NCBI RefSeq assembly: GCF_008831285.2 | Contig: NC_045142.1 | Span: 5,213,501-5,277,500 of the forward strand | Source of the DNA: Nymphaea colorata | Taxonomy: Eukaryota; Streptophyta; Magnoliopsida; Nymphaeales; Nymphaeaceae | DNA: 64,000 nucleotides | Direction: 5' to 3' | The notes under the pieces: generated by a model | Database searches by the model: none | Told to the model about the DNA's origin: nothing | What the model saw: only the letters and a program-made list of their open reading frames with translations | Position numbers and translations under genes: made by a program | In this document: positions 26,863 through 49,284 of the stretch, piece after piece | Layout: every line of letters begins with the position of its first letter | Position numbering within the stretch: the stretch's first letter is position 1

Positions 26863-29800
26863 TTAGATGACACAACCAACTAGCAATAGAAATAGGATAA
26901 CTGACCAAAATGATACTCCAATGATGATCGGCTTCATATTTCTTCCACCATTTGGTGGCGGCGGAATTGGGTCATCTTTGATCTTGTTTCCTGTTATACT
27001 GAATCACAAAGGCAATTAAAGATACTCAAACCATGCTATGAATGAAATAATATAACCCAATTTCAGTTATAGTATTTTTAGTTTTTCTATTCTCAGAGAG
27101 ATCTGAATGGTCAGAGAGAGTTGAATGATGATGCTGGGCTGGCTTCTGCAAAACAAAAAAGAAAAATGCCCCACTTACTTTAGTTGTATCTTTTTATTGC
27201 CTTTCAAAGATGTCGGTAAAGGTCCAGTGAAATTATTGTATGCCAGGTTCCTGCAATTGGTCAATGAAAATCTTGTCATAATAATGTCCAATTGGATATT
27301 AAACTCCAGTTGTACATTCACACTATATGACCGCACTCAGATGAGGAAAGTAGATTGAGCATGCTACAAATTCAGCATAACTGACTGACTTACAAAGATA
27401 GCGTAACCCACAGAGATTTCTAAAACTATGACAGCAATCTCACCTAATGAAACCTGAGACAAAACTCATTTTACTCACCTCAAGCTTGAGGATCAAGTGA
27501 CAACTTCTCATTTAGTCGTAAGTTTAAATTGGCAGGCTTAAGATTATAGAAATATGAAGCCAACAAGCAAATTTATTTGTGAAAATGCAACGTAAATTAG
27601 TTAACAGCTCGTATAACAATGGGCGTTGTAGTGCAAATCATACAAAAAAACACATACATTCATGACCCCAGCTTCTCTTTAGCATCTCCCTCAACTATGA
27701 TGCATATTAATAGACACTTAATTAATTCGTACTTGACTTGCTAGTCCTATTGAACACGTTGTGGTCGGCTCATTAGCTTATTGTTTTGTGTGGAAATGAG
27801 AGTGTTACAAGCCAAACCCGGTTGATGCATGAGCTACAAATGTCCATTCGTTGGTCTACTTGTAACTCTATAGAAATTATGGCCTCAGTCCCTTTGAAGG
27901 CTGTAAACCTCCCTTCATCCTGAGCTGTGCGGATGACATATGCTGCAAGAGTTCTATGCCTCACTTCCTTTGAAGCTTACTCTTGGTCTTGCAACCATTA
28001 AACTCTCAAGAGTTCTTTCAGCTTGCCCATCGATATGCTTTTATTGCAAAAGTTGAGGCAGAGAGAGAGAGAGAGAAAACACATTGCGAGAAAGAAGCTA
28101 CTCACCCAGGCCAACGATTGCTGAACTACTTGAGATAAAGCATCCAGTACAAATTGTTTTAAGTAGCTTTACTTTAAGATGGAATTTTGTTCCTAAAAAC
28201 TGTACTCAATAAGGTTTGTGCTTAATTAAAACACTAGGACTTCTCTAAGGTGTTGCAACCGCGAATAGGGACGAAGCAGCTTCTAATCATGAGAACAACC
28301 ACAGTGGGAGACAGTGTTTCATATGGGCTCCAGACACTACTTTGGGGGCCATTTCATTGGTCATGGTCCAAATTTGGGAGGTTCAACTGTGGAGAGTTGG
28401 GGTTGGGGGAGCTTCAACTAAACGATAAGAAAGAAAGCAGGATAGCTTTGAACAAGCAATCAAGAATCGAAGCCTTAATAAAAACTCTATAGGCTTGAAT
28501 TGAAGAAAGTAAACTTTAAGTTTCACGTCATGAGCTGGCTTTCAGAATTTATTGAAGCTTTTTCATGTGACTAAACTCACAACTCTTTCAAGGAAGGAAA
28601 TGTCCCCAAGAAGTTTGGAATTTGTCCATTCAAGCTGTTGTTACTCAAGTCACTGCAAAATCAGAGTTGAGGTTCAGTGAAACTCTACATACTTATGCAA
28701 GTGGAAAATAAACCAAGCATGACCATGTTTTTCTCACATTATCTCAAGTGAAGTCAGGCTGCTGAAGTCCAGAAGGGTGCCTTCCAAGCCCGATCCACTA
28801 AGATGCCTAAAAAAGCAAAGGAAAATGGAAAGAATATTAAGAAACTTCTTTACGTCAAAATATTAATCATGCATATGGGTTAGAAAAAAAAGATTTGTAT
28901 CATTGCATCAAAATTATTGGCCAATATACTTCATCCAAGTTTCAACTCGGGGGAGGAATGCAGGTAACAATTAAGGGACTCAGATCCACGGTTATGTACC
29001 GCATGCTACTTACAGTTCAGTAACACGTGGTGGATCATCAGCATTGCAACTGAGCCAATCCCAGGTGAACCCTACGGGAAGGCATGGATCGCCTGCCCAC
29101 AGTTGAAGTTGTTGATATTGTTCCTGTAACATCACCAATGCGTTCACTGCAAACCATTGTAAAAAAAAAAGAGCATTGTGCTCAATCTTCTAATGAAACG
29201 AAATGGTAGAAGGATCTTCAGTTAGCATTTTCACCAAAATTTTCAGAAACTTGGAGAAGTGGTTAATCTTTTTCAATTTCCTTAGAAAAAAAATGTGTAA
29301 TAAGAAAAAACATTACTTTTTCTTGCTTTTAACAAGAGGCATAAGTCGGTCAAAGCAATAAAATGAACGTACTTTGTATTTTTTTCCCCAAAAAGCAGCC
29401 ACTCAAATAAGGGCCTATATTATCATACTTGTCATTTTAACCCCATCTAGAATGCTAACTAAAACTTTTAAAAAAATGTGAGACACTCCACTTGTATCAC
29501 AGTTACAAAACAAATGATTCATCTTAAATTAAGATGGTTTAACCTAGCACCTCTTTTTTATAGGCCAGCAAGGGTGAAAAGGTGTCAGAAAAACCACATA
29601 AAGCCTGTACTCTAAAATACATATAAAGATCAGAATTATTGTGTGTTTGTTGATTATTATATAGGGACTGAATTATGAGTTGTCTAACTAATTTAATGAC
29701 TACCTACAAAATGTTACGTATTTTGTATAAATTGGAATATGACACCTTGTGAACGATAATTAAATAGATCAAACAACTGATATATGAAATAACAAGGCAC

Positions 29801-48900: not shown

Positions 48901-49284
48901 CGATGCATGCATGAAGGGCGTCCCTCCCATGGGGATGGCTCTATAGTTTCTCTAAATCAAATCCTTCCCTTGTATGAAAGCTATTAATCTCCAAAGATAT
49001 GCCACTTTTCAAAAACACTAATTTCAGATATGTAGGAGAAGGAAACCAATAACTGACATGTGTAAACTGAGCTCCCAATAGAAAAGTGTGCACGATGTCA
49101 TTGCAGGAGGGGAACTAGAAGCACTAATTATGTGCACTCTACGTGTGGGCATGTGTATTTCTTGCTTGGAAAATAAAGAAAACAGGCCCGAAGGGAGACA
49201 ATGAAAACTCTCACGCTGATCCGCAAAGCAGGAGCAAATTTGGATTGCAGTGCACAAAGCAAAGAGCCGCAGGGATCTTGCCAT
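42966..49284 (-). CDS. Gene B: kinase-less malectin-like/LRR receptor-like protein (522 aa)
   Basis: Exons: 49284-49215, 48866-48341, 46311-45824, 44993-44861, 44675-44607, 44521-44450, 43388-43317, 43104-42966. The first seven exons have exactly the lengths of gene A (70, 526, 488, 133, 69, 72, 72 bp). Order: signal peptide (M-A-R-S-L-R-L-F-A-L-C), malectin-like domain (I-D-C-G-G-T-G-E; W-V-R-Y-P-D-D-P-Y-D-R), W-A-G-D-P-C-L-P cap, LRRs, proline-rich linker (P-P-Q-P-N-G-E-R-N) and a terminal hydrophobic segment. It ends at the same TAA codon as A. No kinase exons lie downstream (40000-42900). The intron-3 donor GTCTCT runs directly into a 19-unit microsatellite, which may reduce splicing. It is presumably a secretory-pathway protein displayed at the cell surface; the function is inferred from the family only. 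Confidence 0.8.
45785..45822. repeat. (GA)19 microsatellite at the intron-3 donor of gene B
   Basis: A 38-bp GA run abutting the 3' end of exon 3. On the coding strand the intron begins GTCTCTCTCT, so the donor GT is itself part of the CT run. In gene A the same place has a short interrupted version. Confidence 0.95.

What the first reader, a model, noticed from the sequence alone, without database searches (positions are those of the whole stretch)
26863..49284. Two tandem kinase-less malectin/LRR receptor-like genes sharing one stop codon inside the membrane segment
Genes A and B each join into an open frame of 521-522 codons (signal peptide, malectin-like domain, LRRs). Both end at the same TAA (26863-26865; 42966-42968), where gene C has TAT in C-V-F-Y-A-C-L. 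The shared stop means truncation preceded the A/B duplication. The seven upstream exons nevertheless keep identical lengths and open frames in both copies, while DNA just after the stop has drifted (B has lost several bases there). This is the pattern expected of a neofunctionalised secreted or surface receptor-like protein, possibly a decoy or co-receptor for kinases such as gene C, rather than of a decaying pseudogene.
Basis: partly seen in the sequence, partly recalled or inferred. Interest (0 to 1): 0.78.

Follow-up and report, generated by a model that had tools for sequence, protein, structure and literature searches.

The report
Kinase-less wall-receptor genes in tandem array
In a large plant gene cluster of cell-surface receptor kinases, several copies have lost the kinase and end inside the membrane segment while some keep a readable outer sensor part, apparently by two independent routes, so the cluster may be making kinase-free surface sensors.

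Summary
A (521 aa) and B (522 aa) splice cleanly, exons 1-7 have identical lengths, and both stop at the same TAA where gene C reads on. They are not a pair. A third complete copy, E, and a fragment, P, carry the same TAA. Five more array copies carry a different stop, TAG, three codons earlier in the membrane segment. Of 22 membrane-exon hits, 13 of 13 without a stop have a kinase exon 0.6-2.1 kb downstream; 0 of 9 with a stop do. Two independent conversions of a malectin-LRR receptor-kinase gene into kinase-less genes fit best. Frames of A/B/E are protected: 0 frame-breaking indels, about 29 expected; pooled dN/dS is about 0.6, with 1 rejected (p 0.001). Most likely product: an anchored sensor ectodomain without a cytosolic part. 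A GPI anchor is possible but not favoured by the rule tested. No expression data were available.

The parts
33255..33324 (-). Gene A exon 1 (signal peptide, by eye)
32394..32919 (-). Gene A exon 2 (malectin-like, first half)
29927..30414 (-). Gene A exon 3 (malectin-like, second half)
29014..29146 (-). Gene A exon 4 (LRR N-terminal part)
28738..28806 (-). Gene A exon 5 (LRR)
28581..28652 (-). Gene A exon 6 (LRR)
27179..27250 (-). Gene A exon 7 (LRR)
26863..26998 (-). Gene A exon 8, coding part: juxtamembrane and hydrophobic segment ending in TAA (26863-26865)
24609..26862 (-). Gene A 3' flank: rest of exon 8, remnant of intron 8 (homologous to kinase-bearing C and D), then sequence shared with B and E but not with C and D; no kinase exon found
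49215..49284 (-). Gene B exon 1
48341..48866 (-). Gene B exon 2
45824..46311 (-). Gene B exon 3
44861..44993 (-). Gene B exon 4
44607..44675 (-). Gene B exon 5
44450..44521 (-). Gene B exon 6
43317..43388 (-). Gene B exon 7
42966..43104 (-). Gene B exon 8, coding part, ending in the same TAA (42966-42968); 10-nt deletion shortly after the stop
58630..61221 (-). Gene C exons 4-8 (kinase-bearing neighbour, TAT where A/B have TAA; low end approximate); its exons 1-3 lie beyond the window's right end
54852..57157 (-). Gene C kinase exons, given as open frames, not exact exon ends: glycine-rich loop and Lys (57157-56882), next exon (match 56809-56684), HRD/DFG (55082-54852); exons further downstream not modelled

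Best explanation
A, B and the outside copy E form a small kinase-less subfamily inside a tandem array of LRR-RLK-I (malectin-like domain, LRR, kinase) genes. An ancestral 3' part lost its kinase exons and carries a stop at the end of the membrane segment (shown). It spread among copies by duplication and unequal exchange (inferred from mosaic divergence). The genes keep a readable ectodomain under purifying selection (shown by indels and pooled dN/dS), perhaps weaker than in kinase-bearing copies (not significant). The product should be a secreted-pathway protein with malectin-like domain, three short LRR exons and a C-terminal hydrophobic segment, with nothing in the cytosol. Inferred, not shown: it sits on the outer membrane face and binds the same ligand or partners as its kinase-bearing neighbours, acting as co-receptor or competitor. 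Loss of the downstream kinase exons also removes the exon junction after the stop, which should spare the mRNA from nonsense-mediated decay (general rule, recalled). A second, independent lineage in the same array (T1-T5, TAG) went the same way and is partly decayed.
For: Complete spliced frames and GT/AG introns in A, B, E. Same TAA in A, B, E, P; different TAG in T1-T5. Kinase exon near 13 of 13 stop-free and 0 of 9 stop-bearing membrane exons. Intron 8 of E matches D to within about 170 nt of the first kinase residues matched in D, and A, B, E share other sequence beyond. Indels on the A/B/E tree: 0 frame-breaking in exons against 84 events in introns; 0 against 14 for exons 5-8 and introns 5-7, 3.6 expected; two such indels in about 61-64 nt after the stop against none in 1565 nt before it. 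Pooled dN/dS 0.6 (best grid value), 1 rejected at p 0.001.
Against: Exons 5-8, the part that co-descends with the stop, give dN/dS 0.68 with 1 not rejected. Point estimates on A/B/E branches (0.55-0.68) are at or above background (0.36-0.57), with no segment significant and 4.57 on 4 df summed, p 0.33. Exchange with kinase-bearing copies may have kept 5' frames clean. Three of five TAG copies are broken, so kinase-less copies in this array do decay. No transcript or protein evidence.
Confidence: 0.55

Rival explanations
1. The stop turned the membrane helix into a GPI-anchor signal: the C-terminal hydrophobic tail is cut and the malectin-LRR ectodomain is tied to the outer leaflet by a lipid, as happened in primate CEACAMs.
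For: The protein ends directly after 18-21 mostly hydrophobic residues in A, B, E and T1-T5, with no charged residue behind the segment. A and E have N-G-G seven residues before the tail. The GxxxG helix motif, present in 8 of 9 kinase-bearing membrane segments read, is lost in A, B, E, and T1-T5 have Pro and His in the segment. PMC5856374 (passages) describes a stop codon in the membrane exon as part of the route to GPI-anchored CEACAMs.
Against: The simple omega-site rule (my own, not a predictor) is met in 2 of 5 intact stop-bearing copies (A, E; not B, T1, T5), in 2 broken ones at a long distance (T3, T4), and also in 4 of 9 kinase-bearing paralogues, so it does not separate the groups. 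T1-T5 keep GxxxG. The same paper reports horse CEACAMs with a membrane-exon stop but no predicted GPI signal.
Confidence: 0.2
2. Young, decaying pseudogenes: partial duplicates thrown off by a fast birth-and-death array, whose intact frames reflect recent origin and exchange with functional neighbours.
For: T2, T3, T4 are broken; P and the stretches around C5:4926883 and C5:5018775 look like fragments; dN/dS in exons 5-8 not distinguishable from 1; clear gene mosaicism.
Against: 0 frame-breaking indels in A/B/E exons where introns predict about 29, and 3.6 in exons 5-8 alone; pooled dN/dS below 1.
Confidence: 0.25
3. TAA is bypassed (readthrough or alternative splicing) and A/B still make receptor kinases.
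For: An exon-8 donor is still recognisable in A, B, E.
Against: The nearest kinase exon found downstream is 57 kb (A), 73 kb (B) and 20 kb (E) away and sits behind another gene's membrane exon; post-stop exon sequence carries frame-breaking indels in B and E.
Confidence: 0.02

Closest known systems
LRR-RLK subfamily I (MLD-LRR-PK superclade)
   Same: Malectin-like domain, short LRR block, membrane segment; malectin genes in poplar are mostly clustered in tandem (PMC7783096, passages). Exons 1-8 and intron 8 of A/B/E are homologous to kinase-bearing neighbours.
   Different: Kinase exons gone, reading frame closed inside the membrane segment.
MLD-LRR receptor-like proteins (RLP4 / RLP4-L1; clade XIII of PMC7783096)
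   Same: Signal peptide, malectin-like domain, LRRs, membrane segment, no kinase (PMC10954545 and PMC13143284, passages).
   Different: RLP4s are predicted to have a short intracellular domain and MLD-LRR proteins form their own superclade; A/B/E have no intracellular residue and descend from a kinase gene in the same array.
Ectodomain-only paralogues of RLKs (CRRSPs from CRKs; RLP subfamilies after kinase loss)
   Same: Independent births of kinase-less proteins by partial duplication in RLK tandem arrays (PMC6368629, passages); kinase loss with conserved ectodomain (PMC9603095, passages).
   Different: CRRSPs are described as secreted; here the hydrophobic segment is kept and the stop falls at its end in two lineages.
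GPI-anchored CEACAMs of primates
   Same: Stop codon in the membrane exon of an amplified receptor family (PMC5856374, passages).
   Different: Unrelated protein family; GPI anchoring unproven here.

Membership tests
LRR-RLK subfamily I (MLD-LRR-PK) | Malectin-like domain followed by LRRs and membrane segment | tested here: met
   Pfam hits; hydrophobic exon 8
LRR-RLK subfamily I (MLD-LRR-PK) | Cytosolic protein kinase domain | tested here: not met
   Stop in membrane segment; no kinase exon near A, B, E
LRR-RLK subfamily I (MLD-LRR-PK) | Common descent with MLD-LRR-PK genes | tested here: met
   Exon 4-8 dS 0.3-0.5 to C and D, intron 8 alignable to D
RLP4-type MLD-LRR RLP | Ectodomain MLD-LRR without kinase | tested here: met
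RLP4-type MLD-LRR RLP | Membrane segment followed by a short intracellular domain | tested here: not met
   A, B, E end with the hydrophobic segment
RLP4-type MLD-LRR RLP | Descends from the separate RLP4 clade | tested here: not met
   Exons and intron 8 come from a kinase-bearing array gene; caution: no RLP4 sequence was put in a tree
GPI-anchored protein | N-terminal signal peptide and C-terminal hydrophobic tail at the end of the protein | tested here: met
   Read from the sequence; signal peptide by eye, no predictor run
GPI-anchored protein | Small residues at the omega site and omega+2 before the tail | tested here: inconclusive
   Met in A and E, not in B, T1, T5; also met in 4 of 9 kinase-bearing paralogues
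GPI-anchored protein | Lipid attachment shown biochemically | not testable with these tools
   Needs bench work
Pseudogene | Frame-breaking changes in the coding sequence | tested here: not met
   None in A, B, E before the stop; T2, T3, T4 do have such damage
Pseudogene | dN/dS about 1 after loss of function | tested here: inconclusive
   Pooled 0.6, 1 rejected p 0.001; exons 5-8 alone 0.68, not rejected

The most novel reading that the evidence does not exclude
One receptor-kinase array has twice, independently, changed a membrane helix into a GPI-anchor signal by a stop codon at almost the same residue together with loss of the kinase exons. This would give lipid-anchored malectin-LRR co-receptors beside their kinase siblings: a plant parallel to the CEACAM1-to-GPI-CEACAM conversion and to GPI-anchored LysM receptors working with LysM kinases (the latter recalled).
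Probability: 0.18. Interest if true: 0.7.

Novelty: new variant of a known kind. Interest (0 to 1): 0.45.

Why it matters
Kinase-less receptors are often treated as separate old families. This array shows kinase-bearing, kinase-less-intact and kinase-less-broken copies side by side, with two independent stops three codons apart, so the change from receptor kinase to surface-only receptor can be studied step by step in one genome, including whether the anchor becomes lipid-based.

Tried and rejected
Readthrough or splicing into a kinase was rejected: no kinase exon near A, B or E.

Simple shared descent of whole A and B was set aside in favour of mosaic genes.

The GPI reading was not adopted as best: the omega rule does not separate stop-bearing from kinase-bearing copies.

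A comparison of intactness, TAA 3 of 3 full-length against TAG 2 of 5, is not significant (p 0.20). P was left out of this count as a fragment.

A stronger-than-background dN/dS on the A/B/E branches is not shown: no segment significant, summed p 0.33.

Copies left out of the codon model: T2, T3, T4 (broken) and P (fragment). Of 13 stop-free membrane exons, 9 were read as DNA (C, D, F, G and five fetched); 4 were not fetched. Of 28 minus-strand malectin exon-2 hits at C5 4.59-5.31 Mb (my count), 21 pair with a membrane-exon hit; 7 do not, and 2 of those 7 were looked at. The DNA copy-number search for the new 3' flank never got an answer. Structure prediction was not tried, since a spliced protein is not a letter-for-letter translation of the window. 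A comparison with solved structures gave 129 matches, 60 shown, which fall on the LRR part and were not used.

Papers were seen as search listings and as passages found by term; none was read whole.

Full report
WHAT WAS CHECKED. The window is C5:5213501-5277500 of a 408-Mb genome, taken to be a plant from its gene content. The Malectin_like family gave 128 matches (exon by exon, a lower bound), with a dense minus-strand array at C5 4.59-5.31 Mb. A and B were spliced: 521 and 522 codons, exon lengths 70, 526, 488, 133, 69, 72, 72 in both, then 136 and 139 nt to the stop. GT/AG borders are present at all seven introns of each. Both stop at TAA where gene C has TAT.

NOT A PAIR. In the 250 kb held as contiguous DNA (C5:5120001-5370000) the same TAA occurs in a third complete gene, E (520 codons, exons open), and in P, a fragment at 5364820-5365510 on the other strand that abuts a 95.5% copy of a malectin gene with one long open frame at 5323382-5325062. 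A genome-wide search with gene C's exon-8 peptide gave 22 hits, all on C5: 13 without a stop, 4 with TAA (A, B, E, P) and 5 with TAG. A second query gave 26 rows: the same stop-bearing copies plus weak extra rows, including one on C6 with a TAA at E 0.7 that was not followed.

A SECOND, INDEPENDENT TRUNCATION. The five TAG copies (T1-T5) read ...RNMKPIIVGVPVGSVILLHMLVG-stop or close variants, three codons before the TAA site. By eye the stop comes from a short insertion (4 bp in T3 and T4) relative to kinase-bearing copies. T1 and T5 have open frames from start to TAG. T2 has a frame shift in exon 3, T3 lacks a recognisable exon 4, T4 has a stop in exon 4. The 3' flanks of T1, T5 and T4 (the three fetched) resemble each other. 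They show no kinase exon; T5's flank has one 12-residue match to the glycine loop at E 0.015, which may be a remnant or chance. Weak intron-8 homology to D ends earlier in T1 and T4 than in A and E (T5 gave no match), which fits a separate breakpoint, though at 66-68% identity the ends are uncertain.

KINASE LOSS GOES WITH THE STOP. A kinase exon (glycine-loop exon) lies 0.6-2.1 kb downstream of 13 of 13 stop-free membrane exons. For the eight minus-strand stop-bearing copies the nearest one downstream is 14-73 kb away, and none is listed downstream of P: 0 of 9 (Fisher 2e-6, but these are about two events, not nine). The kinase search scored the best 150 of 581 candidates; the C5 array copies rank at the top. 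Downstream of the stop, E still aligns to D's intron 8 to within about 170 nt of the first kinase residues matched in D; beyond that A, B and E share sequence unlike C and D. Gene C's kinase has the glycine loop, Lys, HRD and DFG; its later exons were not modelled.

SELECTION. Introns of A, B and E differ by 46, 59 and 63 frame-breaking indels in the three pairs; exons by none, only by 3-nt steps. Halving the sums gives 84 events, 29.4 expected in exons, 0 seen. For exons 4-8 with introns 4-7, 5.6 expected, 0 seen, P 0.004; for exons 5-8 with introns 5-7, 3.6 expected, 0 seen, P 0.03. After the stop, B and E each have a frame-breaking indel in about 61-64 nt. NG86 ratios: A-B 0.39 (dN 0.072, dS 0.181), A-E 0.47, B-E 0.63; the YN00 values are higher: 0.49, 0.59, 0.82. 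A codon model with a separate ratio on A/B/E branches gave 0.57 (exons 1-2), 0.58 (exon 3), 0.55 (exon 4), 0.68 (exons 5-8), best pooled grid value 0.6. Ratio 1 is rejected pooled (2dlnL 10.5, p 0.001) and in exon 3 plus exons 5-8 (p 0.019), not in exons 5-8 alone (p 0.32). Background was 0.36-0.57; the difference from background is not significant in any segment. So the coding sequence is constrained; whether less strictly than in kinase-bearing copies is open.

MOSAIC GENES. In exons 5-8 A, B and E form one group (bootstrap 100). In exons 1-2 E is nearest F, a kinase-bearing gene (dS 0.11), while A-B is 0.27. Exon 4 of A, B, E differs from F's by 2-4% and from each other by 4-5%. The array recombines, so the stop-bearing 3' part can have moved between copies. 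This weakens the inference that truncation preceded a single A/B duplication, and means that constraint in 5' exons may partly date from kinase-bearing ancestors.

HOW IT MAY WORK. The predicted protein has a signal peptide (by eye), malectin-like domain, three short LRR exons and 18-21 mostly hydrophobic residues at the very end. In A, B and E the GxxxG motif of the helix is lost (kept in 8 of 9 kinase-bearing segments read); in T1-T5 it is kept but Pro and His appear. Thus hydrophobicity is kept while helix features drift, as expected if the segment is only an anchor (inference). Whether it is a tail-less helix or a GPI signal is open: A and E meet a simple omega rule, B, T1 and T5 do not, and 4 of 9 kinase-bearing copies meet it too. 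A co-receptor or competitor role next to kinase-bearing siblings is inference. RLP4-type kinase-less malectin-LRR proteins are reported to associate with the wall and to bind SOBIR1 (PMC10954545, PMC13143284; passages).

WHAT IS KNOWN. Kinase-less relatives of receptor kinases, born independently by partial duplication, are described for DUF26 proteins (PMC6368629, passages), and kinase loss with a conserved ectodomain is discussed in PMC9603095 (passages). Malectin gene clusters are usual in poplar (PMC7783096, passages). Stops in a membrane exon that help give GPI anchors are known for CEACAMs (PMC5856374, passages). The listings (20 of 196, 10 of 19, 15 of 225, 15 of 93, 8 of 8 and 5 of 5 papers; titles and starts of abstracts) showed no paper on GPI-anchored or stop-in-helix malectin-LRR proteins; that says nothing wider. 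The finding is therefore called a new variant of a known kind.

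Noticed in passing
C5:4854298, 4863587, 4883265, 4905798, 5025158 (L029-L033, L039-L043): Second kinase-less group with TAG in the membrane segment; two copies open, three broken.
   Followed up: yes
C5:5363181-5365510 (L018): Fragment of a TAA-type gene abutting, head to head, a 95.5% copy of a malectin gene whose other copy is at 5323382-5325062.
   Followed up: partly
C5:5156440-5163699 (L024, L025), gene E against gene F (5184909-5192131): Gene E looks recombinant: exons 1-2 F-like, exons 5-8 A/B-like, showing exchange between kinase-bearing and kinase-less copies.
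   Followed up: yes
C6:1465799-1465951: Weak membrane-exon match with a TAA (E 0.7) about 250 nt before a kinase exon at C6:1466201, in a second array.
   Followed up: no
C5:4926883 and 5018775 (L047, L048): Malectin exon-2 copies for which most following exons were not found in the fetched 8.5-8.7 kb: probably gene remnants.
   Followed up: partly
L045, about 1.7 kb from its T5-proximal end: A 12-residue match to the kinase glycine loop (E 0.015) in the flank of T5: possible remnant of the lost kinase exon.
   Followed up: no
window 24609-25990, shared with B and E flanks; partial match at C5:5352442-5353062: Sequence that stands in place of the kinase exons has a partial inverted copy about 110 kb away; its nature (repeat or rearranged DNA) is unknown.
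   Followed up: partly
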